Shown here: positions 6,982-63,647 of the stretch, one piece after another
Numbering within the stretch: position 1 is the first letter of the stretch
How the letters are laid out: each line of letters opens with the position of its first letter
Source of the DNA: Perkinsus chesapeaki
Taxonomy: Eukaryota; Perkinsozoa; Perkinsida; Perkinsidae
NCBI GenBank assembly: GCA_013115145.1
Contig: JAAPAO010000003.1
Location: 62,001 to 126,000, forward strand
Direction: 5' to 3'
Length of the DNA: 64,000 nucleotides
Made by a program: the position numbers and the translations under genes
Notes under the pieces: generated by a model
Told to the model about the DNA's origin: nothing
What the model saw: only the letters and a program-made list of their open reading frames with translations
Databases searched by the model: none

Positions 6982-8228
6982 CCAGTTGAGGGCGTAAAGT
7001 TGTTAGTTGACGTTTCTCACTTTCTCTCGGCAATTAGTTAGTAATGGAATGATTCAAGAGTTCCCAACTAAGACGTTATGTCTCAACTGACGTTAGGTTG
7101 GGCGGCTTTCATCAATTTACTGGCACAAACTTTTCTCAACGAGAGAAATACGAAACCAGCCTGAGGAAGTCACCCTTCCAAATTGGACTTCCCATGGAAC
7201 ATAGGGAAATTATATTCCAATTGGAAGTTCCAATGGGAGGCTCCCGTGTCTCGCACATTAGCCGGGCATTGCCCGGCGCCGCCGGGCCGGCGGGCAGCGA
7301 TAGAGAATATGATGTTACTCGAAGTCCGATTCTCGCACATATCCGTAATGTCGTTACAGCTCCGAATTTGTTTCGGGCATCCAATTCGTGGAGTCCAAGT
7401 TTCGCCACTTTACAACTTTCAAACTTCCGCAAGAAATTTACAGAGCAAAAAGCCTCACTCGTAAGGGAGCGAATTGTGAATTCGCGTACCGAATTGTAAA
7501 TTGGCTAACGAAGGCACTTTAACTGCCTTTCAGTGCCACTTAAAGTCACTCAAAGTGGCCACTGAGGCCACGATAAGTTATCGTGTCCAAATGGACTTTG
7601 AATGTATGTGCTATATACTAGGGCTGTACTGCAGCATGTAGTCATTGACTACTAGTCAACAACCAGTCGTTCCTAGGCAAAATTGGACCGCAACAAGAAC
7701 CTACGAAGGACCAATCACATCCTGCCACCCACAAGGAAGTTACCGGTAGTAACACCGTTCGGGAATCTCGCCAGTTCTCGACTAGTCCCTTGCTTGCGAG
7801 GCGACGAGGCGGTCTCGTCGAGGCCTGTGGCGGATCAGACGTTCCCAATGCTGCGCATGCAGCATTGGGACTACCTCACCGATGTATCACTATTGTGGTT
7901 TGTCAGACCAACTTGGTCTACCACTAGTTGATCTTGGCCGAAGCTAATAACAAAACGCCAGTTGTGGGAAGTTACTTGTAGCGAGACATTTGAGCAGTTC
8001 GCTTGGACCTCAATTAATGTATCGCCCTGACATGACAGTGTCATGAATCATCCGTCCTGATTTGACATTCTTCTCCATTTGGACTATCAGAATTCCTTTC
8101 AGACCAAAACGCCTGTGGATGTATCTGGTAAGACTTCCACCATCAGCACGAAGACGCAAAGGCGACTTTTGGATCTTAACCTCGAAGGTTGCGTGGAAAT
8201 GTAAGCTGGGTTCGACTTACTCGATGAT
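6982..8228. repeat. Hairpin-rich spacer without a gene
   Basis: No gene is recognisable here. The region is dense in perfect inverted repeats. They are 7261-7277 (8-bp arms, 1-nt spacer) followed at 7279-7293 by 6-bp arms; 7555-7571 (6-bp arms, 5-nt loop) overlapping 7569-7585 (8-bp arms, 1-nt spacer); 7638-7652 (7-bp arms, 1 nt) overlapping 7646-7658 (6-bp arms, 1 nt); 7802-7820 (7-bp arms, 5 nt); 7843-7870 (12-bp arms, 4 nt); and 7905-7919 (7-bp arms, 1 nt). They come in adjacent or overlapping pairs. This may be the remains of non-autonomous elements or foldback repair scars. Confidence 0.75.
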
Positions 8229-8388
8229 TTATCAGTCTACAGATTACGCAACAGGGATCAATATAATTGAAAGAGTATTGCAATTAGGTATGATCTAGCA
8301 ATAATATAGTGTCCGAATAATAATAATTGGCTACTACAAAATATCATTAGCTAAGCTTAAGTAGACAGAGTTATCACACAATGGATCA
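8229..8388. repeat. Direct repeat (LTR-like), copy 1
   Basis: About 160 bp match 10,255-10,424 closely, from TTATCAGTCTACAG to CAATGGATCA. The two copies bracket a minus-strand ORF and retroviral-type integrase fragments, as LTRs would. Copy 2 carries an extra stretch of about 16 bases that creates a hairpin; this copy lacks it. Ends are not perfect TG...CA, and target-site duplications were not found. Confidence 0.65.
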
Positions 8389-9120
8389 GTTTCCCCTCCA
8401 TCTTGACAAATAGCAATGATATGGTAGTAAACTATCATAGTAGACCTTAGGAGACAATGCCCCACTGTTGTAAAACTGCTCTGCCAGCTCTATCAATAAG
8501 TTTATTTTTAAGGAGTTTGAATGGCCCAGCTTGAATTGCGTCCAGATTATAGGTTATCCTAGTCCCAACCGGATACCATTTGTGAGTAGCTGCTTTACGT
8601 TCATAGAGATCGAAGTTGACATCATCCTTATCACAATATGATATGGGTGAACCACACCCGATTTCACCATCATTAACAATGATAATTTATCATTCTTAAG
8701 AAAGAACAACAATGTCTCAGGACTTGCAATGGCTTGATCAATAGCTTCCTTATCAATTCCAATTACTCTAGTAGGGCCAAATATAGACGGATTAACCACA
8801 TGAAGATGTTGGCGAGCCACCTTGAATTCATTATTATTGGCATCACATAAGGTAACCTCATTATTATGAACCGATATAATTTGAAAAGGGCCTTCTCCCA
8901 TATAATAGACCAGACTCCCAATATCCAGCTGTGGTTTATGAACATATAATTTAGCCAGACGGCGTTTATCATAATTCATAGTAGATGTATCAGTATAATC
9001 CAAACGACGAGTAGGAATAATTACTGATAAAGCACCATTTATTTCATCAAGTAACTTTGTCACATCCATATTAGTGACTTTACTTATATCAATAGTAGCT
9101 GGGTCTTGTTGATCTTGGAG

Positions 9121-9208
9121 TTGACTTATATGTGATAGTAATGGTACCAATTTGTTACCATTACTATCACATATAAGTCAAGAGAGGTTTGTTACTAACA
9201 AACCTCTC
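9121..9208. repeat. Double hairpin: 26-bp arms then 13-bp arms
   Basis: Arms 9121-9146 and 9156-9181 are perfect complements of 26 bp around a 9-nt loop. Directly abutting is a second perfect inverted repeat, 9182-9194 and 9196-9208 (13-bp arms, one spacer base C). Together they occupy 88 bp between two parts of the integrase and introduce an in-frame stop. No flanking direct repeat is evident. Confidence 0.93.
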
Positions 9209-9624
9209 GCTTGAACTTCTCCAAAAACTAAAGTGGATGGAGTCATCGAGACCTCAGCGTTATCACCAAAGGCACCTAGATTACTAGCATTAACACATTA
9301 CTGTGCCAAAGCAAGGTAAAGCGTAAGCGTTAGCAAACGGACCTTTCCTTCACAAACATTATTACCAGTAGGAGCATAAGTTAAGGAAAACAGTTTCCTT
9401 ACTCCAGCTAATCTACAGACTCGAATTACAAAATCTGAAGAAGAATACTGAGCATGATCGCTACGAACATAGGTTGGTAAGCCAAAATATGCCATCCAAG
9501 AACATACAAAAGCCACGGCTGAAGTACGGCAGCCTTACTACGGCTAGTACAATCCATAACCCTAGTATATACTGTATATGAATTAAACTCATCAGTAATT
9601 ACTAGGATATAAGTTATATCATAT

Positions 9625-9657
9625 AATGTACTGGTTATATCACATAACCAGTACATT
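9625..9657. repeat. Hairpin with 14-bp arms inside integrase
   Basis: Arms AATGTACTGGTTAT (9625-9638) and its perfect complement (9644-9657) flank a 5-nt loop. It lies between the piece carrying the first catalytic Asp and the following beta-strand of the integrase, where homologues have no such extra sequence. Confidence 0.9.
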
Positions 9658-9838
9658 TGAAAACAGATGGAATATCTGCCAAATCAATAGCAATAGCAAT
9701 AGAACTCTCCAGGTACAATATCATAATCGAGACAGAAGGCAATGTCTTCGTCTTCTGGAGTCTCTGGGTGTGCCTCAGCGAAGGCTCTTATGGATGCCAC
9801 AGTGTATCCAGTGCCCTCCGACTTCTCCAAGTCCCTTT

Positions 9839-10231: not shown

Positions 10232-10254
10232 ACTTAATACTGACTTATCAGTCT

Positions 10255-10424
10255 ACAGATTACGCAACAGGGATCAATATAATTGAAAGAGTATTTCAAT
10301 TAAGTATCATCTAGCTGCTATTGCTAGATTCTAGCAATAATATATCGTCCGAATAATAATAGTTGGCTACTACAAAATTTCATTAGCTAAGCCTAAGTAG
10401 ACAGAGTTATCACACAATGGATCA
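10255..10424. repeat. Direct repeat (LTR-like), copy 2, with private hairpin
   Basis: This is the counterpart of 8229-8388. Relative to copy 1 it has about 16 extra bases next to CTAGCAATA, containing its inverted copy TATTGCTAG. The result is a hairpin at 10,319-10,339 (9-bp arms, 3-nt loop). The single-copy arm exists in copy 1 at 8295-8303, so the inserted bases look templated by the neighbouring sequence. Confidence 0.7.
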
Positions 10425-10951: not shown

Positions 10952-11086
10952 GTATTGCCGGATATTTCCTTTCAGGCTCAGGGTGGTTCAATACATTGCG
11001 CGTCAAATTCTTATCAACTACTTTGGAAACCTATCTAACATGGGGATATCACACTAACTAACATGTATAAGACCTTCGCGAATCTC

Positions 11087-12032
11087 TCAATAATGAGTCT
11101 TCGCACCATCGTTCAAGAGCACTACAGTCAATCGCTCTTCCATAGACCCTGTACAATTCTTGATGATATCTGCAGGCATAGCAGTCCACGCCGCCCACAG
11201 CCTTTGCCTGAGTTGATCTTTGCAGCGAATAACCGGCTTGTCAGACCCATAGATCTGCTTCACCAGGTAGGCCCATATATTCTCAATAGGATTAAGGTCA
11301 GGGCTCAGAGATGGCCACTCAACAGTAGCCACCCCCTTGCCCTGAAACCAGCTTGCTGTACTACGGCTCGCATGGCAGGGAGCATTGTCCTGTTGAAATA
11401 TCAAGTCGTCGGTCTCATTCCTCTGTAAATACGGCAGCAGCTCACTCTCCAAAACATCCTGGTAGACAGTGCTATTCATTCTCACATTAACCTCAGCAAG
11501 AGAGACAGTGTGGTCGGAGCGTATGGCACCCCACACCATAATACTGCCGCCTTGGGAGGATCGCCCACTACGGAGCTGTTCCAGCTCACCAGGAAGTCGC
11601 CAGGCATAGAACACACCGTCGGCGCCATCGAGACAGAAGCGCTTCTCGTCGCTGAATATCCACTTGTCAAATTTGGTATTATGCTCAAGGCGGTGTTTCG
11701 CGAAGCCAATCCTGGAGGTCTTGTGCGCTTCAGTAAGTGGTGGAGTCGCCTTCAGAGCTGCGAATGATGCACCTTCGGCTTTGAGAAACCTTCTCACAGT
11801 TGCAGTTGAGACACCGAGCTGTAAATTAGCGACCATCTCTAATGTTACCCTGTACATAATGAATAACTCGCCGCTTAGCACGGTTGTCAAGCTTTGGACG
11901 TGGCCCTGGCTTCTTTTTCGGGGTCTCTTGTCTTTTAGATCCTACTATTTTGCATACTGCGGACTTGGTGATAGAATATGCTTGTGCTATAGCCTTCTGC
12001 GTGAAGCTTCGAGTCGAAGCTTCACGCTTCAC
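11087..12032 (-). pseudogene. Tc1/mariner-family transposase, frameshifted and 5'-truncated
   Basis: Cut-and-paste transposase. The first frame (12,032-11,826) holds a helix-turn-helix DNA-binding part, KAIAQAYSITKSAVCKIVGS, with the basic PGPRP hook. The second frame (11,890-11,087) holds the DDE domain: WIFSDEKRF (first Asp), DNAPCHAS (second Asp) and SPDLNPIENIW (Glu), a complete DD34E-like triad. The two overlap near 11,830-11,890 in different frames and match the family only if read across a single-base shift near 11,845. The usual first residues are missing: the ORF begins at a 14-bp-arm hairpin (11,999-12,027) that abuts the next element. No terminal inverted repeats were found. It is probably inactive. 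Confidence 0.87.
11999..12027. repeat. Hairpin with 14-bp arms at the Tc1 / Bel-Pao junction
   Basis: GCGTGAAGCTTCGA and its perfect complement flank a single G at 12,013. A partial extra copy, TTCACGC, follows at once. It sits exactly where transposase homology stops and the neighbouring 284-codon ORF stops. Confidence 0.9.
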
Positions 12033-13047: not shown

Positions 13048-16000
13048 TTATTGGGACAGTAGTTGCTCCACTTTAGTTAGTAGGTCTGTAAGCTCCTTGC
13101 CCCGTCCCCTTGTGAGGGAGTTAGCCGTAGGTCGCACGTAGATGAGATCGTCAACGGAACTTGATATCAACCCACAGCCGTGGTAGTCGCTAGTCTTAAC
13201 CAGAACTCCTTCTTGACACACCGTCATTGGTTGTAGTTTAGCCTTCTCCATGTCGTTGTCTTCCTTTACGTAATCTAAAATACGAGCTAAACCATGATAG
13301 ACATCATTAACAGTAATAACTAGGGTACCGACTGGAGGGGGAGAGGTTACAAATTTACCAAAGACGTGTCTCTTGCTACTACCAAGGACTTGGCGTAGCT
13401 TATCCACGTTATAGTGTGACAGCTCATGGTTGACGGCGAGCACATCTTCTTCTTCCGAACGTTGATCCATAGCGTCATCAGGTACATCTAAGCCATCAAC
13501 ATCTTCGACTGGTAACTCGTCGTCCTCGTTGTCCAGAGTGTGAGCAACATCGTCGTTAGCAAAAGTAGATGATAAGTCTCTTCCTTGTACTTCATCATGC
13601 GTGTCGTTGACAACACCGTTTCCATCGCTTCCAGAGTTATTACCACTGAAGATGTCCGCATCTTTGGCGTCAGTGTGTGTGTTCTCAATCGACCTCGGCT
13701 TCTTCCGTCGTAGTAGTCGGAATTCTTGCTCGCTCTCAACGTCGTCGTCTCTCGTATCAGTAGGAGGCCAGTTAGTCTTGTTGTAGGCGGTTAGCGCTTT
13801 GGCCTCACGTAGTAGCTTTCCATCATTGTCAATGTCCACGTCCATGGACCGGACCGAACCATCAACATCAGAATAGACACGTGTGCCCTTTTCTAAATAG
13901 TTGTATATGATGTTCTGTAGTGCTGGAGTGTGGTGAACGTTGCGTAGAGCGAACGTTTCAGCTTGGCCGTAGCACAGAGGTACCTCGAGCTCGTTCAGGT
14001 CGTCTTTCTTCTTAACTCCTCCAACACCTGGTAACACTATAGAGGGCACCGCATCTACAATACCAGAGCCACGTATCTTAACGATAGTAGAGGGTCCTTT
14101 CCACGTAGAGTCCAAATGTTTGCCAACCTTAACGTCACCGGTCTTAGTTGTAAACACAATGTCGTATAACTTAGGCTCATAGGTAGACTCACGTTGAAGG
14201 GCATACCTCTCTAGAAGTCGTTCTTGTTTCAGCCTCCAATAGTCCATATAATCGTTGAGGGTAACCTTAACTTCCTTGCGGAGAGCCTCGACGTTGGGGA
14301 TGGTCTCACGTAAAGCTTCAACTGCATCAGTGTCGGTAAACTTGAGCTTTAGGGAGTCCCAGTCTATGAAGTCGTTCATACCTTCTTGATCGCCTGGTAG
14401 GCGGCCCTTGTAGACGTAGTGTAGCTCTGAAGGACTGACGTTAGCCCATCCTCTAGGGGTGGTATTGTAAGCCCTCACAGAGAGAAGGAAGTCGTTAATG
14501 TAGCTGTCGTTGAGATTGGATCTTTCAGTAGAGTGCCTGGATTCTCTAATCGCCTTCACGACATCCACCATATCCTTGTGGGAACGCTCCCAAAAGCTAA
14601 GATGTTGACCGTAGCCAGGGAGGGTATAGTGTTTAGTACCGTGGCGCCTAAGGACCTTCTTGACGTGCTTGGTGATAAGAGTAACCTTGTCGTTATCGCT
14701 CACTACCACAGACGGCGAACCGTGCTCACAGAATACCCCATGAACTGCATCAGCAACTGTCTTGGTCTTAATGTTTCTTAGTGGTCGAGCAGCAGTAAAG
14801 CCACTAACATAGTCTTGTACCAACAACACATAGTAATCTTTGTTAGGATCTAGTCGATCACCTGAGTCGTTAGATGTTCGACTGGGGCGGTCGTAAGGAC
14901 CTGCCACGTCTATACCAACTATCTGCCAGAGCCCAGTAGTCAATAAATCTTGGACCTTGTTGACAATGTAGTCGTATTTCCGTGTAGCCCTCGCTTTTGT
15001 ACAAGATGTACATGAACGTAGTGTCGACCTCACAACTCGGGTTATCCTCTTAGCATAGAACCGTCGTTGAATTAAGTTGGCTACACGTCTTGCTCCTAAG
15101 TGGATGTACTTGTAATGGTATACGACAGCCAAGAGTCGTTGCACAGCACGTGAGTAGTTACCAGTGCCAAGATAGATGACGCCGTTCTTATCCTCATCGA
15201 CCTTACGGAACTTTTCAGCACTGGGTTGTCGTCGTAGTATATCGTCCGCATCTAAGTAGCATATCTGACTCCACCGTCGTAGTTTGTTTGCCTTAACGCC
15301 AAAGTGGCTGTAAGGAGTCTTCTTCTTCAACGCCTTCTTGAGGTCGTTCAGATCTTCGTCAGTTTCTTGTGACCGTCGGATGCACTGGAGTAGACAGCGT
15401 TCATATGATCCATCTTGGAGAAGACGTTCATCTACCTCTTCAGGAGGCCGAGCGTATTGCGCCAAGGCAAATAGCTCAGACTTTTCTTCTGAGGTAAAGG
15501 AATTGTAGTTGGGGAGATCGATGCCGTCTACGTTGATAGTCATGATACTAGCACTGAGCGTCGGTACCGCATCATCTTGGTGACAGCCCTTGATGTCGTT
15601 CGTGGCGTTAGCCACGGGAGAAGTAGTTACAGAAGAGAAGTCCTTAGTAAACCCAGCCACGGAGTCGGGGGTCTCGTAGATCATTGATGGGGTACCAACT
15701 TCATCCTCACTGCCGGCCGTCGGTGTAGAGCAATCGTCCACGTCCTGAGTGTAGTCGTAGGCAACATTACTCACAGTCATAGCTTTGACTACGAGTGTGC
15801 CATCAATGCCGTTGTCGCTGCTTACCTTCGCCCTCGATATAGAATCAGCATAATTCAGTTCAGTGGGTACATGTTTGACCGTAACATCAAGTTGGCGACA
15901 CATCTCTCGTATCTCCTTAAGACGTCGTCTTTCAACGATAGGAAGTTTAGCATCCCTTCCAGGTCGGCGTAGTCGATATACGGTGATCTCGCTGTCACTT

Positions 16001-19000
16001 AGTACAACGCCTCGTCGCTCGGGTAACTGTGGAGAAAGGCGGTCTAGAGGTGCTTGATGTGGTCGTAAACATGTTCTAATGGGCAGGTAGGCAGACATTG
16101 ACTTCAGCCACGTCAGTGCATGATGTAGTGCAACAAGTTCTTTACGTGGAATACTCCATTTTGACTGTGTCAAAGGAAATATTCCTCCGCGAGCAGTAAC
16201 CCTTGTAGTGGTCGTAGTCGAAAAGCATCTGACGTCCACGCCCCAAGCCTCCGCGGAGGCGTCAGCACTGATCACCAAGGGCAGGTTCTCTAAGTCAATG
16301 AACCGGTGGTAGCCAACAGTGGTAGTTGTAGCAGTGCACAACGTAGTCCAGTCCTTTACGCGACGATAGAGGTCCTCCTTTATAACGTCATCCCAGGACT
16401 TATGGTTAGCACAAATGTCTCTCCAAATGAGGCGTCCTTGAAGGTCGAGTTCCACGTACAATCCAAGTGGATCATATAGTGATGCCAGTGCAGCGCAAGC
16501 TTGAAGTTTAGTGGAGTTATCATCAGGCACGTACCCGGAGTAGACGGCGTAGAACTTATCTTCATCTAGACGCAAAACGTATCCAAGGGTAGATTTCTTC
16601 TTGCACTCGTCGTTCTCGGTCAGGAGCCAGCTACAAAAGCTTTTGACGGGATCGGAATGAAACCCGTGCCCATTGAAGACGTAGGTACCAAAGTTGTAGG
16701 CCGCCGCAGCTTCTTGCTTAGTCTTACCACCGAAGTAAAGATCATCAACGTACTTGAGTAGTAGGACTTTAAGAGGTATAACCGGCCCGTTGTTGATATA
16801 GTCGAAGCCAGCCGCAGAGGGTCTGATTAGGACCTTCTCGAGCTGCTCTTCGCATAGTTGCTGATCAGTAGACGCCATAGTCTCAGTTGTCATAGCTGGT
16901 AGTCTTCTTGTCTTCTCGAGTGTTACCAAGTCGTCGATCTCGTTCGCAACGTCGTGGGTACATGCTTCTAACATGCACGGAGCATTATTGCTCCCAAACG
17001 CTATACTAGACCACAGTACGGTGTAGTTACCAATGCACGTGTAACAGGAATAAGCGACGTCGTAAAGCGATCCTTTCATTTGGCAGAATGCCTTCGAGAC
17101 ATCAGCGGACATGAAGTACTTAAGACCACGTAGGAGTAGTAGGACGCCCTGCAGGTCGTTTTGGGTCTTCCCTCCGCGTCGTGTGAACTTGTTGAGAGCT
17201 CTGAAGTCTAGCACGATCCTGCATGGCGTTGTGGGATGTTGGTCACGGAAGACAGTGTGGCTTGGAGTATAGTGCTTGGGCTTCACCACAGGCGTACCGT
17301 CGTAAGCCGTACCAGTTGTCAGCTCATCCCAGGCCTTCTGACACTCATCAAACGTTGGTGGGCCGTTGTCGTTATTCTTAACGATCTTACAGAACCCTCT
17401 TTTCACGTAAGCATTGAGTGCTTCCTCAAATGATTGTCGTTGTTGGGCTGAAAGTCGTCGTATAGAGGCTGCACCACGACTCGCCGCATTTTTGAAATTG
17501 AATGGCGGCCTCGAGTCGTCCCCCCATGGGATTCTAACGTATGCCCTGCCGAGTGGCGTTGTCTCATCATGACACCACGTTCTCGATAGCGCATCCCAGG
17601 GAGGAAGATTATCGTCGTTGTTGTCGAGAGTCTCGTCTTCTTTATCGTTGTTACAGGTCACATCAATAGTTGTAGGAAATTCTTTGTGGTGGGGGTCATT
17701 AACCATAGGAGAAGTAGATGTGGCCATGTAGTAGACGTATAGGTCGTTCAAAGGCTCGTTCTCCAAGTGGTTACACTTGCCTTCACCGCCATTAAAGTCG
17801 TTGGGAGTAGACTCTTCAATATTAGGATGTAGTATGATATCAGGTAGGACTGCTTGGAGTAGTTGATCGTCACTTAAACGTTCGGGCGCTGATTGTGGTT
17901 GGCCTCGTAGAAATATGTTCTTGATGTGGTTGATCTTGTACGTGAAGTGGATATCTTGTTGTCGTAGATCGTCGTTCGAGTCATCGGTGTCCTTCAATGG
18001 CATTACCATACAGTTGTCATCAAACCGTACGGCTTTGCTAGATGGTAGGTGACTGTCATTAGTGTAGACGTGCATGCCATGTGGGCCAATCCGAATAGTA
18101 GTTCGGAGCTTAGCCAGTGTAGGGCACCCCAGGAGGACCGGAACATTGAGGTCATCAGATGTTACAATGAAGTGGTCGTCTACAACAATGCTTCGAGTAG
18201 AGATCCTCAACTTCACAGTGCCGTCCACTTGTAAGGCCGTGCCATCTGCAACCATGATGTTGTGTACAATGTAGTCGTCAACAGCAGCGTGTGGTGATAG
18301 GTAGCGTAATGCAGATCTCGTTATTAGAGACACTTCAGCACCCGTGTCGAACAGAGCAGGTATTTCTTGTCCCTCTATAGTTATAGTTCCAACCAGCATC
18401 GACGTAGTAGGTGATGTCTTACCGTTAGACGATGTGGGAGATGTTGTTGCTTTAAGTAAGACACGTTTATCAAGGCGTTCACCGCTACACGTACTAGAGA
18501 TCATGTGCACCTTAGAACTCGGCCTTGGGGTAGACGGACGTTTAGCCGTTGAACCGTTAGCCTTGCTTAGCCGAGTCGTACAAGCGTATGCCAGATGCCC
18601 TGGATTTTGACACCTGTGGCAAAACAACTTGTCAGTATTGACCTTGCAGTCGTCGGTAACATGATTGGGGTTCCCACAGGAACGACACCGTTTGTCTAGT
18701 TTAGTAGGCTCATCAGCTAGACAATCCTTAGCAGCATGTCCACGTTGAAGGCATCTGTAACATTTGAAGCCAGTAAGGTCACGTCCCATACAGACGTAGT
18801 GCTTGTCGTTACCACTCCCGTCTGTTGAGTAGCCATTGCCGTTGCCAATAGAGTTCACCGAATCGGACCGTTTCATAGGAGAGTCACGTCGCCAAGGTCT
18901 TGTCCCTGGGGAGAAGCCCTCACGGCGTCGACTCTGTCGCTGCTCAGAGTAATCTTTTGTGGAGTTGTCGTTGCCGGTGGCCATATAGCTCTTCTGAGCA

Positions 19001-24558: not shown

Positions 24559-26425
24559 TTTAAGTCAGCAGGCTTCCGAGGAAATCCTCCCCTCTCAGAA
24601 GAGGCGCCATCGACGTTAGTGGCTTGGATCAAGACCAACGCAAAGTCTTCCAGAAGGTCGTGACCAGCATCAGGTCGACCCTGGCAAATGAGAAGGAGCT
24701 CGAGGAGCGTTACTTCTTCATCACCGGAGATGCAGGATGCGGAAAGTCCTTTCTGCTCAAGTCGATAATCCACGAGATAGGCACCGAGCCAGCCAATCCA
24801 GTGATATTGGCGTGGACCGGAATGGCGGCGAAGCAAGTCGGTGGTTTGACGATCCAGTCGTATTTCCGGCTTGCTTTTGATAAGACAGGAATGGTCGGCG
24901 ATAACGCGTTTATGCGTTCGACAGTAGAGTTGACCAGGAGGATGGTGATGGGTATCAAAGGGAGTGACGAAGAGAAGCGCTTGAAGCGTGGCGCGGTCAT
25001 ATATGTGGATGAAGTGGGGGCAGTCCATCACAGTGTACTTGATGCTATATCGGAAACGATCAAGATTATTCGCCAAGGGATGCCTTCCAGCCACCTGCCA
25101 TTTGGCGGTCTCCCAGTAGTTCTCTCGGGAGACCCATGCCAAATAGGCAGGGTCTCCCTTTTTGAAGGCTCATCCCGCTATAGTCCTGAACAGTATCCAA
25201 CACGGCCTTTTTGGGAATCTGCTTGCTGGGGGGAGATGCGTCCAACAATAATGTACCTGACAAAGTTCAACCGAGGCTCAGATAGTGAATACCTGGGACT
25301 TCTCAAAGAGATAAGGAGAAGTACGAGCGAGGACGACGGAGTTCCCAAGTTCAGCAGCTCCTCTGTGAGTGTGCTATCAAAAATAAGAGACAGAGATGGA
25401 GGAGCAGTGATGCCGAGGTAGGGTTTAGATCAGAATATGACAATTTAAATACATCATAGCATGAATTTCATACTTATATGGCCATACCTTTTATTGCTGG
25501 TCGTGCCAGATCTAGGAAACCAACCCAATGTGGGGTGTTAAAATATATATGACTCTAAATTCAGGATTTTATCTATTTGCCAAGGCATATCATGATACGA
25601 TACTATTATATTATTGTATATTATAGAATACAGCTTTCGCGTATAATTAGTACAATATTTATGTTTAATATGTTGCATATTATTTACACATTTAACCGAG
25701 TAGTACATCATAAATGGCGCAGACTATTTTTAAATTGCCATTAATTTAATTTCACTAATCTGTCAATATTCATATGCATAGTAAAGATATTTATGATGTT
25801 GCACTATTCGGCATAGTCATGATTATCATAACATATAACAAATACATCTAAATTAGTGAATTATTACTGAGCCTAAGAAGCCTTCCTGAGCTAGACTTCG
25901 AACTAAGCATATCTAGAGATTTCCATTGCGCAACTTGCAACTGTCATACTACATTTGTGATCTATGAAACACGAGATTTATATAATATCTTGCAGCAATC
26001 TGCGTGTTGTGACAGCTCGAGGACTATTGTGGAACCGCGTAGGCGACCAAAGTCTTTTTTATAATTATAATTCTTACCTAAGTGTCTCCTGGGGTCTGCT
26101 CTGGAGTGAAAGTTTCACTGTGAAACCAATCAGGTTCAACCACACTGTTATCTGTCTGAGAAACAAAGATGCCGAAGAGCACAACCATAAGCACATCCAT
26201 AGTCTACCTGGTCCGCTTCATAAGCTCATGGCAATTGATACAGAGGCATCTCCTTTACCACCATGCTTCCAGAAGAAGGACGTTGATGGCATGGGATACC
26301 GAGCTGCAATATCTCTAACATCGGCACTTAGGAGTCCTAAGTTAGGACTGAATTTCGTGGCGAGTGACATGAACTCTTTGAAAATCGCGGAGCGAAGGAC
26401 GCCGTGCCCCAAAACTCCACCCTAA
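24559..26425 (+). CDS. Divergent PIF1-like helicase, apparently truncated
   Basis: The main exon (about 24,559-25,420) begins after a TTTAAG acceptor-like site. It has Walker A FFITGDAGCGKS, then WTGMAAKQVGGLTIQSYF, Walker B VIYVDEVGAVH and LPVVLSGDPCQI, the helicase motif order of the PIF1 family. After a roughly 700-nt AT-rich interval, probably an intron, homology resumes with NHTVICLRNKDAEEHN and LPGPLHKLMAID (to 26,425). The normal LPPV of motif III is absent, and motifs V and VI (the HK...G and ALSRA blocks) are not found before the frame ends, unlike the complete PIF1 at 40.7 kb. It may be a decaying or element-derived copy next to the mobile DNA. The 5' end is not defined. Confidence 0.6.
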
Positions 26426-33165: not shown

Positions 33166-36100
33166 ATGGCTAGCAATCAGCCTCCCACGCTTCATGCAGC
33201 CCAGCAAGGGGCTAGGTGCCGTCCAACGGATGTGTGTGACCTGCTACTGGAGAGGATAAGGCAGGTGATGTGGCTGGGTCGGACATAGGGAAGTGACAGG
33301 GTCATGTCTCGAGGGTCATGACGTTGGGCATAGACGTCGAGGACATCATGGACATAGAGCTGCTACTGCTGCCCTGTGTCTAGTGTGTGATTCCCTATCA
33401 GGGCGTCATATACTAAACGGGCAGAGGATGGGTCATGTCTCGAGGTTCAGGTCCTTCCGGCCTGTGACGCTGCCCGGCAGATTGAGCTGGCTCAGAAGGT
33501 AGTATGAGGAATGGTCGGGGTGGGATAGAGTGGTGGTGTAGTTGCGGCAGTTGGCGGCGGAAGCCAGCACTTTGAAGCAGCAATTGCTGTCACACGCATT
33601 GCAGCCTGTGGCGTCGCAGCAGAGGGTTCTGGTCTTGATGCAGCGAGCAAAGGAGTTGCTAGGGGAAAAGGTGGTGCGTGGGAGGGCGATTGAGCAGGTT
33701 TCGGCTGGGGACAAAATCTTGTGCAGAAGTTGTCATTATCTCTCCGCATTACGTCGTGCCCAGGTCCACCATGAGATACTTCAGAGAGCGGTATCGATGA
33801 TCAAGACGGGGCCGCAACAGGGCGCTATGCAACAGCAGCAGCAGACCAACAATGCTGTAATGCAGGCCTACCTAAGGAGCCAGGCGGCAGCGCAGAATAG
33901 AGGGAACGCTCAGGCGGCGGTGAGTCAGGTGAAAAGATTCTAAATAGGTTGATTGGTTGACTTTGGTGATTTAGAACTCTTCTGCAGTGGCCGCGGCGGC
34001 AGCTGCTATAATGCGACAAGGTAGGCACCGGTAGAGTGAATCGATTCTAGTATAGCTTCCCAAAATTAATGCTGCTTTACTAGGGCATGCGGTGTTGGCA
34101 GGTCACCAGAACGGTGGTGTACAAGGCGGCGTGAATTCTCAGATGGCAGGCCAGGGCAGAGGGGCTATCAACAACGCTCAGTTTATACAGCAGTTGAGGT
34201 CACTACAACAACAACAGCAACAGCAACAACAGCAAAGGGTAAGGGCCGGTGCCAGGCTAGGGCAGAGCTGCCGTGGCAGGTGGCCCAGAGTCACTTGGCA
34301 CCACAAGGCCAGCAGGCAGGGACAGGAGGGAGCACTGGAGTAAACAGCCAGTTGGCTAGTACCCTTCAGGATCAGATTAATAGGGTAATATCTTTGAGGG
34401 GGGGCATGAGTGGTTGACGATGACCTTTCACTAAGGCTTTGGCATTGTTATAATCTTTCACACTTCATGGCTCCTGATACATTGCCATCTACACCGTACC
34501 TGTTTATGATGCTACGTTTCGCTATGTGAATAGTCCCGTCCACCACTAGCTACCCCTATGGATACCGGTAAATGCTCACCGTGAGTGAGGGCGGCGTCAT
34601 CTAGGTAGCTGTAGGGAACAAAAGCCGTTCATTTTGTCTTACTCCCAAGTTGGGAGTCCCGACATTTCCAGGTGGCCAGTGGGGCTCTTTCAGAGCCCGG
34701 GAAAATTAAGGCAGTCACCGCAATAGGTCCGGAAAATGACAGTTCGATTTTCAGTGGGAAACTTTCGCGTGCTTTGGTGATGGCGCCACGGAATCTCCGA
34801 TGGCGCCGTATATACGTGCGTCACTGTGCTTGCTAATAGAGTAGAATGTCATAGAGCCGTAGAGGAACATATGGTCTCCCCAGTCCGAGGCATTGGATGC
34901 TTCTATTGTCACTAGGAAATTTATGGAGGAAGATCTGTCGTATTCGAAATACTTCTAGGGCCTCCGGGAGGCCAGATGACTCCCTGGGGTGGGGTCAGCG
35001 GGGTGATGCGTTGTTTTAATATAGAGTCGTAGGTGAGCTGTAAGGAGATCTCTATGCTGAGAGTGTGAAAGTCGACCGAAACCTACCCTTCTTCCTTTGA
35101 TGCACGGCTTAAGCTCAGATACTTTCACCGCGTCCAAGCCCGATGTCTTCCCCAGTCTCGGTCGCGGCCAACGATCCAGCTAAACGGGCTCGCATCGACC
35201 CGGCAGCATCGCCTGCAAGGTCCCATGCAGGCAGCACTAGCGGCAACCTGCTTCTGCCACCACCTGCCACCTCGCCGACCTCCGTCTCACCGCAAAGGCC
35301 ACCATCAACGCCTCGGAATCCAAGCGCCTCGCCGGTTGTGAGTGCTGCTGGTGATGCTGGGAAGGGGGGAGCGGATGCATTGGACGCTCTCGAGCAGCTT
35401 ATTATGGCCCAGCAACGAGCGGCTAGTACCCCACCGCCAATGTAAGGCGGCGACTAAAGGCTCCGCAGTGGTATTGGGTATCTTTCTCGGTCAGGGCGTC
35501 TCCGAGTGCCTCGCCATTGACGATGGGAAGTCCGGGTCCGGCAGCCAGTCCAGGTTGGGAAGCTGGCTCGCCATCTGCGGTAGGCACCTTTCCGAGCGTA
35601 TCTTAGCTTTAAGCGTGCTTCAGAGCCCTTCACCTTTGTCGTTGGCATCGACGCCGCAAATCGATATGGAGAGTGTACGGAGAGCCCATAAGGAGCAGAT
35701 GGTAGCGGCTGATCGCAGCAGTCGGATGGAGATGACGGATTTCAGTTGATGAGGATCGGACATCGCGTGCAGCGAAGAGGAGTAGCGCTGGCTAGTCAGG
35801 AAGTGCTGACCGCCTTGGGTGACGTGATGGAGCATTGGGCGGAGGTGGCGCAGCAAATGCTGCATAGAATTAGCAAACACAGGTAGGGAAGCTGGAGAGA
35901 GAGGAAGGATATTGTTGTTAGAGCCGAACTTTATCCGTCCCAGATTGCACGGCATTTGTCCCAGAGTCGGGACACATCCATTGAGGAGTGGTATAGGCGG
36001 AAGAAGGTAAGGTGGGGTTGATTGATAAGGGTGCTTCGTACTGTAGTGAACAAACAGGAAGAATAACTGCAGAACTGTGGGGAATGGACCTTTGCTGGTT

Positions 36101-37325: not shown

Positions 37326-39171
37326 ATGGCCTCCCCTTCGACATCGAAGGATGTATACAGTGGGGTTTGCCAGTGCCAGCGGCTTGGCGCTATCTTCTGC
37401 GTTTTCGTGCTGCATTTTGTCATAGGCGGCTTGCTGCTCATATCGGTTCCTGACTTGCGAGATTTCGGTGAGTCGCTCCCCGGTTTAGCCCTACGAAAAG
37501 TCTCGTTTGGCAGGCTCGTATAAAGGCAAAGTGTCCGTCGCTCTTATGGTGCTTGCTCTCGTGCTTTACCTCCGAACAGCACTGTGTGATCCGGGCTATT
37601 TGAGACCCAATTACCAGCCGCTTCCCAACGAGTTCGCTGGTACAGACGGCGTGGACCTTGAAATGGGCGAAATGGACACTTCTGTGTAAGGAGATGGGGC
37701 TGCATGCTCCGTCGGGGTGGCAACCTGGAGTCTAGTCGATCGTCTTGGAGAATATATTTTGAACCGGTCCTCAGCTGGGGATTTCTAGGGAACTGAATAT
37801 GTCTTTCGGCGTAAAATACTTTTACGCAAATAAATATATGAAAAAATATATAAATATTATGAAAAATTTGGAGCTTATATTTTTATGATACGTTGCAGGA
37901 AATGCATTGAACTTCAATGATTGAAGTAAAAGTCCGCCTCTCGGATGTCACGTGGTTCTAGGATGCTAGGATGTGGGTGAAGCAGCCGAGCTCGCCAGTT
38001 TGACTTCACGAGATCGGATGGAATCTTTTTCGCTGTTCGGCGATTCCCCACTGTTGAGCTTGAATGCGGATGACGAACATTAATGATTCTATTCAGAATG
38101 GGCAAGCCGTCAGACGATACCGCCGAAAGTTCGCGGGCATCAGAAGCGCGCCAGCGGACGCCAGAGACGGATGGCGGCCACTCGGACGAGGATAGTGGAG
38201 AGCCTGTGCCCCGTCAGTTCGGGGTACCTTTACGGTTTTGCAAGAAGTACGTGGACAGGCAGCGATCAAGCCTTTAGGGAGCGTCGCCTTCGGCAGGTGT
38301 GAAGTCTGGCAACCTTTGCGTTGTAAGCACTGTGCTGATTGCAATCGTTGTGTCCGAACTCACGACCATCACTGTGTATGGCTTGGCACATGCGTCGGAG
38401 AGAACAACCGAGTTTGGTTTTACTGGTGAGGACAGCTGCCTATCTGCTCACTACCGCTATTACCTTCTCAGGTACCTCTGGGCACAGTGGGGTGAGCTGC
38501 TCTGGTACTTTGTGCACGGCATTAAAAGGGCGCTCCAGTTCCCCACTGAGCTCCAGAAACAAAGCTTCGCCCAGGTTTTCGGAGTAAGCTGACGCCGACA
38601 TTGAGATATGGCTTCATGTGATCTCCAGTATGGTATCCTCAGGTCCTGATTATTGCGGACTTCATGGCACTTCTGTTTCTCATCATGCTTACTTGCTTAG
38701 TGTGCTATCACACATACCTAGCTTGCCGAGGAGTCACTACATGGGAGAACATATCTTGGTGAGGTCGATAAAGATTCATTTGAGCTCGATTCAGTGCCTA
38801 GAACAGACCGTGGACAGAGTGAAGCTTGTCAGGTATCGAATATCATACCTCAAGCGTATCCGTCCGAGTGATGGAACGCCTTTTTCGCGTTCCTTGGCGA
38901 TTAACTTAGCAGCATACTGTTGCCCGCCCTCTGGTAAGAAAGAGACTCAAGATAACCTCTCTACCTTGTTGTTTAGGGTGTTGCTGGAATCCTTGTTTGC
39001 GTCGTGCTGAGAGGAAGGCTTCAGACCTTGTTGTCTATGCCCCTGGTGGAGAGGCGTTGTGGAAGGTTGGACCGCCGACGTACCCCTGCATATGCTCGGA
39101 CCGTGTCTGTGGTTGCTGTATTGAATAGGCTCATTCTCCTATCTGAGGTACCTCGGGCTCGCATACGCTAA
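37326..39171 (+). CDS. DHHC-type protein S-palmitoyltransferase
   Basis: Attaches palmitate to cysteines of target proteins at membranes. The first exon from ATG 37,326 encodes two hydrophobic segments ([32 protein letters not shown]) and the DPGYL motif ([10 protein letters not shown]). After an intron at about 37.7-38.1 kb comes a charged linker, then the zinc-binding DHHC domain: [18 protein letters not shown], then [19 protein letters not shown], with the catalytic Cys in place. Two further hydrophobic segments follow ([29 protein letters not shown]). The motif [18 protein letters not shown] resembles the stretch after the last helices in the ZDHHC12/PFA group. The stop at 39,171 depends on the last splice choices. 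Confidence 0.88.
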
Positions 39172-43650: not shown

Positions 43651-46600
43651 ATGGGCAAACGCCACTGCACCCGCCGCGCTGCTTCAACAACCGATGCAGT
43701 GCTGCTTGCTGCTGCCTTGATCATTGGAAGGAGCAAAGGAGCTCCGTGCCATGTCTTGTGGCTTCCAGATGATAGCCTGCCTTATTCTGTTACGATATTT
43801 GAGGGGATGAAGAAGTCGTTTCATGAAAAGCTGGTGAGTTCAATTGCCATTCAGGGTTTGACCGAGCTGCTGCAGTGAGTCGCAGGCTTCGCGAAATATT
43901 GTGAAGGTGGTCGGGGACGTTCATATATTTTCAGTTCCCACGTGGACCGACCAAGATGGAGCGCGAAAGGAGCGAGGAATTCGTGAAGGCATGCCCTGCA
44001 TACGATTTCGCCATGTTGCCTCCGCCCCCAGACCAGACAGAATGGTAAACTCAGAGCAGCCTTCGGAAGCGCACAAGGAATCATCATCAGGTTCGAGTTG
44101 GGCAAACCCGAATCCTTGTACAAGGATCCGACTGACAAGAAGCTTGCTCAGTCGATCAAATACGTCATTTATCACATTTGTCAACTTAATACACTCATCC
44201 CACTGGAGAGGATCTTCCTAGCGGGTATCTACAGAGGGGGAGCTGTAGCTATGCAGACTGCGTAAGACAGGTGCATTGCCTTCCATGTGTCATTTTCTTC
44301 ATTCTCTCAGATGGTATTATCCTGGCAAACTCGGTGGGATACTATCTTTCGCTGGATGGATCCCCCTCCGTGGTGGGGCGGGTCATGCTTGGGTAGGGGT
44401 AGGGGGAAGGGATCTCACGCGAACCCCATTCTATGCCCTTCCTGATATATATCTCGAGAGAGTAGACTACTCAGTACCGGATGAAGAATGGCGAGTCACT
44501 ACTCTCGTAAGAGTTCTCAGCCCTAGCCGCGATCATTTAGTGTCTTAGGCATTGGCAGGGTGCCGACAACTGGCATACGTTTCCCAGTGGCACCGGTGTA
44601 GCATACTCGATGTTCCCAACTTTAAACGAATGATGAGCTTGCAACGAAGCAAGAGCAACACGAGCATATCGATTGCGTTCGGCCAGTTAGCCTCTGAGCT
44701 CGTACAACCTCTGTGTGCCGTAATTTGGTTCGATCCCCCGGAGCGGCCGTGGCACAGGGCGAAGCTGAAGAGATCTGTAAGTGTTCCTCAAACTTGACCA
44801 AAGGGAAAAATCGTGGCTGCGATTGCGAATATATCGCGTTCGTTGAACGTTCCCTCCTACGGTCTTGAAAAGCACCCAACTTGGATGGCAATCGTTTGCC
44901 ACCTCCAATGGAGGAATCGGCCCTCTGGTGATTAATACTCACTCGATTTATACTCGAAATAAACACCACCGCAAACTCAAGATGAAACTTGAGGGTCCCA
45001 CGGTGGAGGGAATTACTCCTCCCAACTGATATAATGGGACTCCCACCATACCAGTTGTAGCATACGCTTTGTCAGGTAGAAGCTCTTTCGCAGAAGGGAG
45101 AGTTGTCTCTTATTTGCGGCGAGAATATATTATTAGAGCATGATTTCATAAATCCAAAGGACGGAAAGGCCTTCGCTGACGGGTAAGGCAATTGCAAAGC
45201 TATGGGAGACCTGAAGGCAACCTTGGACATCATAGAGTATCGTTCATATATAGGCTGTGATTCAGATCCGACAAGGCTGAGCTTCATTATCGTTTTCTTG
45301 CGACCTACAGACGTCTGCAAGAACTGAACATACCGCCCCACCGTATTGTACTTGTTGGCAAGGGCGTCGGTGCCACATTAGTGGGGCACATGGCGTAAGA
45401 ACAACAGCTGAGGAAAAGTTCACGCACTCACTTCTATTACAGATTGGAGAATAGAGCATCTATCAAACAGCTGGCTGGTGTTATCCAGGTCAACCCCTCC
45501 GATGTAACTGGGGACCTTGCCTGGTAGTAGCCATTTCAGTTCTCAGGTTCCATCTGCTACAGAACCCGACCGCACCGCTTCCGCTATACCAATGAGGCAA
45601 ATCAAGCAAAGGACGGATTCTGGGTACGACGTTGATGTCACAGCAACGTCGTGACGATGTCGTCGTCGCTCGTTGGCATCCGTCTCCACCGGTTCAGGGT
45701 TGAAGAGGAGGTGCTCGAGCATATGGCTAATCTTCTTTCGAGAGCCCCTCGACGATGTACTGTAGTCCTCTTGGTAAACGATATTCCAGAGCTGATCTCT
45801 TTCGGGTCTTGGAGCCAAGCGGTAAGCCTTAGTTGCTTTCGGACAATATACCTATAAACATTAGCTGGTGTACGCGCTATGACTTAGGTTGAAGCGGGCG
45901 CGAAGAGCCACAGGCTCAATGATAAGTGCAATGATGAAGTTAAGTTCGTTACTATTGTAGAGTCTCTCCTTTGGTAAGTGCTAGCTTGTGCCACAAGCTA
46001 GCGGGCACCCCAGTGCAAGTGCACTTGTGTGTCTCTCTGGCCTTCCTACATTCTTCTCCAGGGTGGACCTGTCCTCTCGCAAATCTGATGTCCTTTCCCA
46101 TGTGTTCCGACTTGCTGATGAGAACCGTCTAATAGTTTTGCTTCCCTACTCCCTGGGAAAGATATACGGGTGAGACCAGCAGTCCCTCTACGCTCGACAG
46201 GCAGCATGTCCATCAGATCTCATCTGTCGGGGAATAATATAGTGAATATAGGCTTTCCTGATATAATAACAACGAAAGCCGATAAAGGGCGTCAAGAAGC
46301 TCAGGTACCTTCTGCGCGTTGGAGTTCTTCTCGCCGACGATTCGAGATTCTCCAGTTCTGCTTCGTTGATGCGTTTATTTCAGGATACATTAACCCATTG
46401 CATTATTCCGTTCGCTCTGAGTTGGGCGTGGAATACCGCGTCTAAAGTAACAAGACCTATATCGAAATGCAGCAGCAGCGGCTGGGAGCTGCTATAAGGT
46501 GTGGTTAGTCGTTTTTACGAGAGTACCACTGAGAATATTAACTGAAGTGTCTTCCTCCTATGCCCATGCCCCCTACATGTTGCAAATGTTGCTTTAGTGA

Positions 46601-54899: not shown

Positions 54900-55118
54900 G
54901 ACGGCACGGGAAGCACGGCTATGGGGAATCTCTTGAGCATTGCGTCTCCTTACCCCAGGGAAAGTCCTCGTGCAAGTAGTAGAAAGTACTGCCAGTAGAC
55001 TGGTTACCTCTGGTCATGCCACTCTCGTGTGACTGGGGCTGTTGCAGCAGCAAAGTTATGCCGTGGGTTGTGCTTTAGCACAGCTAACAGAATGAGGCTT
55101 ACTCTCCCGATGTCGTTC
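54900..55118 (+). ncRNA. RNase MRP RNA (possibly RNase P RNA)
   Basis: The RNA core of the endonuclease that processes pre-rRNA (MRP) or pre-tRNA (P). Visible elements in the family order: helix P1 pairs 54,902-54,911 with 55,105-55,115 (ten pairs, one G-U, one bulged A). P3 stem is TGGGG 54,922-54,926 with CCCCA 54,953-54,957. CR-I reads GGGAAAGTCCTC. CR-V reads AACAGAATGAGGCTTAC. The P4 pseudoknot pairs AAG plus CCTC (54,962-54,969, with the universally bulged U at 54,965) to GAGGCTT (55,094-55,100). A P8 hairpin has stem AGTA/TACT (54,978-54,990) and loop GAAAG. GARAR in that loop is the feature recalled for MRP rather than P RNA, so MRP is favoured. About 219 nt is within the known range. 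Pol III promoter and terminator signals are not obvious. Confidence 0.8.
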
Positions 55119-57885: not shown

Positions 57886-57979
57886 GATGTGTCGCAAGCT
57901 GCCATAGCAACTTGTGTGGCAGAAAATTCAACATAACTCAACGCTTGCCTTATCGGACAACATAGCAAGAACAACATGA

Positions 57980-58891: not shown

Positions 58892-58989
58892 GGCGAAAAA
58901 CGCGGCAAACAACAGCTGGCGATTTTGAGCGTCCCAGCAACGCGAAGCCTTCAACTATGAAACTATCTCGTCCTTCGCAACATGCATAC

Positions 58990-62020: not shown

Positions 62021-62675
62021 ACCTTCAAGAAACTCAATTATCCGCAGTGCGCGATGGCGTTGGGAAGTCAGAAGAGAGCAAGAGTTACTCCCCCGATGTC
62101 GCGTGCGTGCACGATATCTTCACGAAGCTGCTGTTCTGCCTGGGTTTAACTTTCCATATGATGGCATCGTTCGTTTACTGAGCTTTTACCTTAATGGTAT
62201 CTAGATGTGTCATCGGGAACTTTACTCAGCTGAGTCAGCCTCTTCAGGTTCTTCGAAGTTCGAAGTCTGAACTTCCGAGTCTCTTTCGGTCATGGACATC
62301 ATTCAGCGCCTGAATTTCTGCCGATTGGTTCGCTTTAGTCGAGCGTCAGGATTGGCATTTACCTCATCAGAGTTTGGTGGGTGGTATAGAGTCTAGGCTT
62401 CACATTGCAGATACTATGAGTTGTAGGCAGAGTGTAGATTCGAGTCGAGAGTCTCCAACTCCCCCCACTGATGAACTCAGAAGTAAGTGATCATAGACAA
62501 CTTTTATTCATGGCAATTAACGATATAAGATCACGCCCGAACTGCTTCCTCTTCCACTAGACAATGTTAGCGAGAGCGTTTGCTGTGCCGTCGTGCCTGA
62601 GGAAGACAAGATATAGGAGATTCTGGGATCGCTTCGACAGTGATACGAGCAAGTGATATTTGTAATAAAGGTGAC
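62021..62675. other. Intergenic with short palindromes, no gene recognised
   Basis: ACTCAGCTGAGT (62,224-62,235) is a perfect palindrome. CTTCGAA and its complement with a 1-nt spacer lie at 62,251-62,265, overlapping a 7-bp inverted repeat to 62,275. No coding exon is recognised. Confidence 0.5.
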
Positions 62676-63240
62676 CTACACTTTATCGTTGGACGTTTCG
62701 CTTGTTCCAGCACTCAACTTTCCGACAGTGGCATCGAACGCCGGCTCCGTTCCCTGAAACGGTGACAATAATGGATCTAGGGGCACTAGTACTTACCTCG
62801 TGGTTTCTCCTCATTCGTAGTCCTAGGTAAAATTGCACCCAGCTGGATGCGACGAGGATAACCAGTAAAATAATTATAACAACAAGTAGAGGCCCGTGGT
62901 CCTCGGGGCTCGGAATTGTTGCTTGTGAGGTTTGGAGCCTGAGAGAGAATCAGGATTTCAGGAAACTAGTCGAAATTTGTTACCTGTCTTCGACTTCCAC
63001 TTGAGTTGTCGGCCCTACTGCCGTACCAAAGACGGGGTCGAGGGTAATCCCTTCAAAAAGACCCGGCCTCCAGGTAGTTCCAGTCTCGACCGGAGAAGCG
63101 GTGCTGGTACTGGTTTCAGACAAGTAGAGGTCGAAGTTGCCCTCTATTTGACTGAAATCAAACAGCTCGCGGTCCTCATGGGCCACAGACGGCAAGCAGA
63201 TCATCATAGTGACGATGTAGATGAAGGTTTGACGCATCAT
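62676..63240 (-). CDS. Small type I membrane protein of unknown function
   Basis: From ATG 63,240 a signal peptide (MMRQTFIYIVTMMICLPSVA) is followed by an acidic, Thr-rich lumenal part with no cysteine (FDLYLSETSTSTASPVETGT). The next exon, after a 48-nt-class intron, gives PSPEDHGPLLVVIIILL and VILVASSWVQFYLGLRMRR, a single transmembrane helix with a positive stop-transfer. A last exon encodes a short cytosolic tail ending SETSNDKV at 62,676. All three exons join in frame with GT-AG introns. No family is recognised. The topology is inferred from the hydrophobicity pattern. Confidence 0.6.
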
Positions 63241-63600
63241 TTCAGTCGACTGGAGTAATCAACTTCACCTAAGGAGTAAGTGGCACTAGTCAACTTCATT
63301 GGATTAACTCGATTAATGCGGTCGGAGACCGGTCGCGGTAGAGCCGTGCGGTCGCGGGCCTCTACCACGACCGCATGCCTAAATGCACGATTATTCTTTG
63401 CCGAAATGCCTGGTATCTCCTTGTTCAATCATTGGTGGTATATTCAGCGTAAGCGTACCAACATGGGAATCGGAAACCGTCTAATCGATGAGAAGCAGAA
63501 CGGGAGCTTAGCTGAAGGGACTATGGATACATGTCCCAAACCCTTACCGTGAGTATATTGAGGAGGCTCGTTATAGTAATGATTTATAAGTTACCAGTTT

Positions 63601-63647
63601 TCTTACCACTGGTAAGACGGTAAGGTCCTGGCAGGACCTTACCGTCT
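63601..63647. repeat. Double hairpin: 8-bp then 16-bp arms, each with 1-nt spacer
   Basis: TCTTACCA and its complement flank one C (63,601-63,617). Overlapping by three bases is a second perfect inverted repeat, 63,615-63,630 with 63,632-63,647, arms of 16 bp around a single G. The surrounding DNA (63,241-63,867) has no recognised gene. Confidence 0.92.

What the first reader, a model, noticed from the sequence alone, without database searches (positions are those of the whole stretch)
7261..63647. Window-wide excess of near-perfect hairpins, many with a one-base spacer and often paired
Perfect inverted repeats with exactly one spacer base occur at 9182-9208 (13-bp arms), 11,999-12,027 (14), 45,980-46,002 (11), 63,615-63,647 (16), plus 8- or 9-bp arms at 7261, 7569, 10,890, 26,326, 34,641 and 63,601. 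For uniform bases I estimate under 0.02 such repeats with arms of 11 bp or more in 64 kb; four are present. Many sit side by side as double hairpins (7261/7279, 7555/7569, 7638/7646, 9121/9182, 63,601/63,615). They avoid most exons. They could be a family of tiny mobile hairpin elements, or scars of foldback-templated DNA synthesis; both are inference.
Basis: partly seen in the sequence, partly recalled or inferred. Interest (0 to 1): 0.82.

Follow-up and report, generated by a model that had tools for sequence, protein, structure and literature searches.

The report
Hairpin scars of excised transposons
Most of the odd little hairpins in this stretch of a Perkinsus (mollusc-parasite) genome look like scars left when cut-and-paste transposons jumped out and the broken DNA ends were closed and reopened as hairpins; the scars are unusually many and unusually uniform.

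Summary
Perfect inverted repeats with exactly one spacer base are in strong excess (arms of 7 bp or more: 34 in the window, 4.3 expected), and the excess recurs in 200 kb sampled elsewhere in the genome. They are neither a mobile family nor generic foldback scars. The dominant unit is a 22-nt structure, F8 = t1..t7 | reverse complement of t1..t8 | t2..t8: 37 exact in 286 kb, 0 in simulations; in a 264-kb subset 28 exact at 8 bp and 0 at 7 or 9. This is what excision of a transposon with an 8-bp target duplication would leave if both flanks were closed as hairpins one base off the junction, nicked, and annealed through the duplications. The 8-mers follow nTnnnnAn, the Hermes (hAT) target pattern; paralogues show empty sites; longer paired hairpins share one 8-mer at their tips. 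hAT relics exist, but one plausible intact element was seen. The kind is known (hAT excision footprints); the density, the dominant product and the scarcity of elements are unusual. 45 of 155 hairpins fail the F8 test.

The parts
7272..7293 (.). Exact F8 unit, 8-mer CCCGGCGG; overlaps a further 8-bp-arm palindrome at 7261-7277
7638..7659 (.). Exact F8 unit, 8-mer GTAGTCAA
10482..10503 (.). Exact F8 unit, 8-mer GTCGGCAT
26105..26126 (.). Exact F8 unit, 8-mer AGTGAAAC
26327..26348 (.). Exact F8 unit, 8-mer CTTAGGAC
37905..37926 (.). Exact F8 unit, 8-mer CATTGAAG
5787..5808 (.). F8 unit with 1 of 14 pairings broken
7898..7919 (.). F8 unit with 1 of 14 pairings broken
8672..8693 (.). F8 unit with 1 of 14 pairings broken
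9606..9627 (.). F8 unit with 1 of 14 pairings broken
34642..34663 (.). F8 unit with 1 of 14 pairings broken
62251..62272 (.). F8 unit with 2 of 14 pairings broken (chance gives 1.4 such or better units in 264 kb)
9121..9181 (.). Long one-base-centre palindrome, 30-bp arms, 1 mismatch: left hairpin of a pair; tip 8-mer GTACCAAA from one arm, GTAACAAA from the other
   Evidence: tip 8-mers read by eye
9182..9208 (.). 13-bp-arm palindrome, right hairpin of the same pair; tip 8-mer GTAACAAA
   Evidence: by eye
10319..10339 (.). 10-bp-arm palindrome made by a 20-bp insertion into one member of an LTR-like pair; tips at 10316 and 10329 share ATCTAGCA, present once at the empty site
8230..8394 (+). 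Other member of the LTR-like pair: empty site, without the 20 bp
9625..9657 (.). 16-bp-arm one-base-centre palindrome, 1 mismatch; partner hairpin not identified
11999..12027 (.). 14-bp-arm palindrome, not assigned to an F8 unit
45980..46002 (.). 11-bp-arm palindrome, not assigned to an F8 unit
63601..63647 (.). Adjacent palindromes (8- and 16-bp arms); their tips share only CCAG, not an 8-mer
   Evidence: by eye

Best explanation
The hairpins are mostly excision footprints of cut-and-paste DNA transposons that make 8-bp target-site duplications, most likely of the hAT superfamily. An element sits between two copies of t1..t8. On excision the transposase nicks one base inside each flank and closes each flank as a hairpin, so the left flank reads t1..t7, then t8', then t7'..t1', and the right flank is its mirror image. 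A nuclease nicks the hairpins eight or more bases from the tip. The unfolded 3' strands then end in t8'..t1' and t1..t8, which are perfectly complementary because the two duplications are identical; they anneal and are filled in, leaving t1..t7 | t8'..t1' | t2..t8. That is 22 nt, two overlapping 15-nt palindromes with one-base centres, a net gain of 14 bp over the empty site. When hairpins are opened further out and joined without that annealing, two longer palindromes with the same 8-mer at their tips result. Shown here: the structures, the 8-bp unit, the one-base centre, empty sites, the target motif, hAT relics in the genome. Inferred: which transposase, the nicking step, the annealing step.
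For: (a) Exact F_k structures in 264 kb: k=8 28, k=7 0, k=9 0, k=5 3 and k=6 1 (both at chance), 0 for k=8 in 5 simulations; 37 exact in 286 kb, 0-1 when the third block is displaced by 1-6 nt, 0 in 10 Markov-5 simulations. (b) 8-mers have T2/A7 in 44 of 82 positions, p=6e-8, and 68 of 116 in the larger set; Hermes prefers nTnnnnAn (PMC10368747, passages). (c) Empty sites: L018 site 1313 is 14 bp longer than its paralogue, which has one GTCTCGGG; site 9740 is also 14 bp longer, though its paralogue's 8-mer has diverged; two paralogues carry separate F8 units 6 bp apart explicable from one ancestral sequence; the LTR-like copy with hairpin 10319 has 20 bp that three other copies lack. (d) Tips of neighbouring palindromes share an exact 8-mer in 41 pairs, 4 of them outside the F8 spacing, against 0 for 7-, 9- and 10-mers and 2 each for 5- and 6-mers; two more pairs match by eye. 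(e) 21 one-base-centred long palindromes against 2 even-centred at the same score. (f) Published Ac/Ds footprints hold P-nucleotide palindromes centred on the complement of the base next to the element (PMC5873905, passages); Kat1 makes flank hairpins (PMC4763223, passages). (g) hAT dimerisation domain at 4 places in the genome, one inside a candidate element with an exact 8-bp duplication.
Against: The responsible element was not identified: hAT matches are few and the two regions queried are single-copy, and strict searches found no element with terminal repeats and an 8-bp duplication in 264 kb plus seven 3-kb loci. The one candidate, L039 1154-4766, has short imperfect terminal repeats and its duplication TATGCTAC fits A7 but not T2. 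Classical short hAT footprints are scarce (one-plus-one class 9 against 3.4), unlike plant and yeast data. 45 of 155 palindromes are more than 3 mismatches from F8, where chance would supply about 19. Tips of 63601/63615 share 4 bases, not 8.
Confidence: 0.86

Rival explanations
1. Same excision-footprint logic, but by another superfamily with 8-bp duplications, such as Merlin.
For: Merlin makes 8- or 9-bp duplications, and P. marinus keeps two preserved Merlin frames without recognisable terminal repeats or duplications (PMC8101967, passages).
Against: Flank hairpins with a one-base offset are described for hAT; I know of none for Merlin (recalled). The 8-mers fit the Hermes motif.
Confidence: 0.07
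2. Replication template switching or foldback synthesis without a transposon: a polymerase copies t1..t7, switches strand to copy t8'..t1', and switches back at t2.
For: Would also make palindromes from one pre-existing arm, as at the LTR-like pair.
Against: Does not predict a unit of exactly 8 bp, a T2/A7 motif, or a one-base centre kept for arms of 11-30 bp.
Confidence: 0.04
3. A family of tiny mobile hairpins.
For: Repeated architecture across the genome.
Against: 37 of 37 exact units have different sequences; five hairpin queries found only themselves; the inverse segment equals the flanking 8-mer each time, by the definition of the unit.
Confidence: 0.01
4. Assembly or library artefact.
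For: Raw reads could not be checked; enzymatic fragmentation can make hairpin chimaeras (recalled).
Against: A fixed 8-bp unit with a target motif, mutated units as well as exact ones (28 exact, 13 with one mismatch in 264 kb), and depletion in long open frames.
Confidence: 0.02

Closest known systems
Ac/Ds (hAT) excision footprints in yeasts and plants
   Same: Palindromic P-nucleotide insertions centred on the complement of the base next to the element; palindrome arms up to 20 nt in S. cerevisiae; frequent microhomology at the joint (PMC5873905, passages, which cites the yeast and plant studies)
   Different: Those footprints are heterogeneous and mostly short; here one fully annealed 22-nt product dominates the palindromic classes, and it is found as a natural genome-wide record
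Hermes and TcBuster (hAT)
   Same: Hermes: 8-bp duplication with nTnnnnAn (PMC10368747, passages). TcBuster: excision insertions complementary to the flank (PMC3499496, passages)
   Different: No intact relative was identified here as the source
Kat1, a domesticated hAT transposase of Kluyveromyces lactis
   Same: Hairpin-capped breaks on flanking DNA (PMC4763223, passages)
   Different: One locus in mating-type switching; here many dispersed sites
V(D)J recombination (RAG)
   Same: Hairpin ends opened off-centre leave P nucleotides (recalled)
   Different: RAG hairpins have no one-base offset and its transposon relatives make 5-bp duplications (both recalled)
Amoebophrya introner elements
   Same: Inverted repeats in a related alveolate lineage (PMC7789003, passages)
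   Different: Those are introns with direct repeats of 3-5 nt and inverted repeats at the two ends; no 8-bp unit

Membership tests
hAT excision footprint | 8-bp target-site duplication | tested here: met
   k=8 alone enriched among k=5-14 for exact units; 8-mers shared by palindrome tips, none for 7-, 9-, 10-mers
hAT excision footprint | Target motif nTnnnnAn | tested here: met
   44 of 82, 68 of 116; motif source PMC10368747
hAT excision footprint | Palindrome centred on the complement of the base bordering the element (one-base spacer) | tested here: met
   rule from PMC5873905
hAT excision footprint | Empty allele with a single 8-mer | tested here: met
   Paralogues; at the site the 8-mer has diverged. 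Few sites could be compared; true alleles were not available
hAT excision footprint | Filled allele with the responsible hAT element at the same site | not testable with these tools
   No isolates or relatives held; no filled copy of a footprint site seen
hAT excision footprint | hAT transposase in the genome | tested here: met
   PF05699 at 4 places over the cut-off; confirmed in 3 of the 3 places from which pieces were scanned
hAT excision footprint | Active or intact element family with terminal repeats | tested here: inconclusive
   One candidate at L039; strict search 0; relaxed search 3 at the true register against 0-2 displaced
Merlin footprint | Merlin transposase present in this genome | not tested
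Mobile hairpin family | Shared sequence between copies | tested here: not met
   37 of 37 exact units distinct

The most novel reading that the evidence does not exclude
Perkinsus may run a high-throughput, near-uniform excision pathway: hAT-like elements, or segments treated as such by a domesticated transposase, are removed so efficiently that the genome keeps thousands of 22-nt scars (extrapolated) and almost no elements. The hairpin ends would be healed by one dedicated annealing route through the target duplication, loosely comparable with programmed DNA elimination in related alveolates (ciliates; recalled).
Probability: 0.12. Interest if true: 0.85.

Novelty: new variant of a known kind. 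Interest (0 to 1): 0.6.

Why it matters
Excision footprints are mostly known from engineered assays. Here a natural genome carries 22 exact units in 190,551 non-N bases outside the window, roughly 4,000 genome-wide if that sample is fair (extrapolation; many sampled stretches are contig starts). Each would mark a past insertion and excision with its target site, a gain of 14 bp and a small hairpin. That gives a countable record of transposon traffic after the elements have gone, a simple detector (F8) usable on any genome, and a clue to how this lineage repairs hairpin-capped breaks. It also warns that a genome-wide excess of small hairpins need not mean functional RNA structure.

Tried and rejected
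Mobile hairpin family: rejected. RNA genes: Rfam found one RNase MRP at 54900-55116 and ARAGORN no tRNA; neither lies at a listed hairpin. Classical direct-repeat footprints: 6-nt runs at lag 8 are not in excess (41), while lag 14 is the highest of 36 lags (89); lags that are multiples of 3 are raised too. In the repair-class scan two other classes exceed expectation, zero-plus-zero (306 against 88.6) and zero-plus-three (8 against 0.9); they fall on lags 6 and 9, where period-3 and tandem repeats are common, so I did not count them as footprints, but this was not resolved. Elements with terminal repeats: strict search gave 0 for 8-bp duplications and 3, 1, 1, 0, 0 for 5, 6, 7, 9, 10 bp; the relaxed search gave 49 at the true register against 11-18 displaced, mostly one tandem-repeat array in L011. 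The L021 candidate (499 bp) proved single-copy. Amoebophrya introners do not match. Literature: searches listed no title on such footprints in Perkinsus, and 'Perkinsus' with 'hAT transposon' gave 0 papers; this covers only that open-access library, and apart from passages read I saw listings only.
Full report
What was checked. One-base-spacer repeats are far above chance in the window; spacers 0 and 2 are at chance and a few others show small tails. The same holds in 20 stretches of 10 kb taken by contig number from the same genome, so this is a genome-wide property. The best protein match of a window gene (TOM40-like, 32006-32947) is Perkinsus marinus at 94% identity over its whole length, so the genome (35.4 Mb in 884 contigs) is a Perkinsus species; which one is not settled.

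The unit. Many hairpins come as two overlapping 15-nt palindromes whose centres are 7 nt apart, i.e. X-X'-X. Written with an 8-mer t1..t8 the structure is t1..t7 | t8'..t1' | t2..t8. Searching for the same structure with units of 5 to 14 bp in 264 kb gave 28 exact cases at 8 bp, none at 7 or 9, chance numbers at 5 and 6 (3 and 1), and none at 8 in five simulations. With one mismatch allowed, 7 bp gives 4 against 0.6 and 9 bp gives 1 against 0.0, so a slight halo exists. With four more loci (286,299 bases, 276,850 without N) there are 37 exact and 58 with at most one mismatch; displacing the third block by 1 to 6 nt leaves 0-1 exact, and ten Markov-5 simulations leave none. All 37 8-mers differ.

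Origin. A structure with two copies of an 8-mer around its own inverse points to a target-site duplication. The 8-mers are symmetric, with T at position 2 and A at position 7 (44 of 82; 68 of 116), the pattern reported for Hermes, a hAT transposon (PMC10368747, passages). Local paralogues give the before state. In L018 a duplicated segment carries F8 in one copy and a single 8-mer in the other, 14 bp shorter (site 1313). A second site (9740) is likewise 14 bp longer than its paralogue, though there the paralogue's 8-mer has diverged. At a third place each copy carries its own F8 unit (1245 and 9368), 6 bp apart, both explicable from one ancestral sequence. In the window, one member of an LTR-like pair has a 20-bp insertion that makes the 10319 hairpin; the other member and copies on two other contigs lack it, and a fourth, more diverged copy (L028) does not align well enough there to judge.

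Two hairpins, one event. The model predicts that the two palindromes of one event carry the same 8-mer at their tips even when they are far apart. A scan of pairs of one-base-centre palindromes within 160 nt (at least one arm of 7 or more) found 41 exact 8-mer matches, 37 of them the F8 form and 4 at centre distances 13, 21, 35 and 45, against none for 7-, 9- or 10-mers and 2 each for 5- and 6-mers (no simulation was run there). Two more pairs, whose perfect arms are broken by mutation and so were missed by that scan, match by eye in the sequences: window 9121/9182 (7 of 8 from one arm, 8 of 8 from the other) and L006 8188/8265 (8 of 8). Long palindromes are overwhelmingly one-base-centred: 21 against 2 even-centred at the same score.

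Mechanism. Shown: structures, unit length, centre, motif, empty sites. Inferred from hAT biochemistry: a nick one base inside the flank, a flank hairpin, a nick of the hairpin, annealing of the two 3' strands through t1..t8, filling in. Published Ac/Ds footprints have the same centre rule and frequent microhomology (PMC5873905, passages); TcBuster footprints carry insertions complementary to the flank (PMC3499496, passages); Kat1 makes flank hairpins (PMC4763223, passages). The spectrum of products differs: sorted by bases added at each end, the fully annealed class has 37 exact cases and the classical one-plus-one class 9 against 3.4 expected; two classes that fall on lags 6 and 9 also exceed expectation (306 against 88.6, 8 against 0.9) and are confounded by tandem and period-3 repeats. 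One DRMBL (SNM1/Artemis/Pso2-type) domain was found; its role here is a guess.

Where are the elements? PF05699 is found in four places; pieces from three of them were scanned and confirmed. Two hAT-bearing regions were queried genome-wide and matched only themselves. One plausible intact element, 3.6 kb, lies on L039 with an exact 8-bp duplication (the hAT match falls inside it). Footprints, by contrast, are dense: 22 exact in 190,551 non-N bases outside the window, about 4,000 genome-wide by simple extrapolation, with the caveat that many sampled stretches are contig starts and that density is very uneven (0 to 7 exact per 10-kb stretch). A few very active low-copy elements hopping many times would suffice; a domesticated or programmed excision is possible and not excluded.

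What does not fit. 45 of 155 palindromes with arms of at least 7 are more than 3 mismatches from F8. Chance should supply about 19 (4.3 per 64 kb, scaled to 277 kb), and some are long forms. In the window 15 of 34 are of this kind; of these 9182 and 10319 are explained as long pairs and 7220 perhaps (tip match with 7182 at distance 45). 7261, 7569, 8031, 10665, 10890, 11999, 27425, 34959, 45980, 56366 and 63601/63615 are unassigned; the last pair shares only CCAG at its tips. Three of the 21 long palindromes have arms of exactly 30 bp (window 9121, L006 8188, L008 4641), which is unexplained.

Selection. Hairpins are depleted in long open frames: 0 of 41 F8 units (at most one mismatch) and 1 of 123 palindromes lie in frames of at least 300 aa, which cover 18% of 254,551 bases, as expected for 14-bp insertions in coding sequence.

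Verdict. Real, genome-wide and largely explained: excision scars of 8-bp-duplication, very probably hAT-type, transposons, with an unusually uniform repair product.

Noticed in passing
9121-9181; L006 8188-8248; L008 4641-4701: Three of 21 long one-base-centre palindromes have arms of exactly 30 bp; a preferred hairpin-opening distance or coincidence.
   Followed up: partly
63601-63647: Two adjacent palindromes whose tips share CCAG only: a 4-bp duplication, a damaged event or another process.
   Followed up: partly
13048-20277: Uninterrupted 2,409-aa frame on the minus strand with Pao-type peptidase and integrase domains: a BEL/Pao-type retrotransposon, with no one-base-spacer repeat of arm 7 or more inside.
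   Followed up: no
54900-55116: RNase MRP RNA gene, 79.4 bits.
   Followed up: no
L037-L040 (regions of the four hAT matches): These 22 kb hold 9 of the 37 exact F8 units, denser than the rest of the sample.
   Followed up: no
L011 about 8991-9486: Tandem array of roughly 18-bp units that dominated the relaxed terminal-repeat search.
   Followed up: no
G000:C27:37644-37853: The one DRMBL (SNM1/Artemis/Pso2-type nuclease) domain match, a candidate hairpin opener.
   Followed up: no
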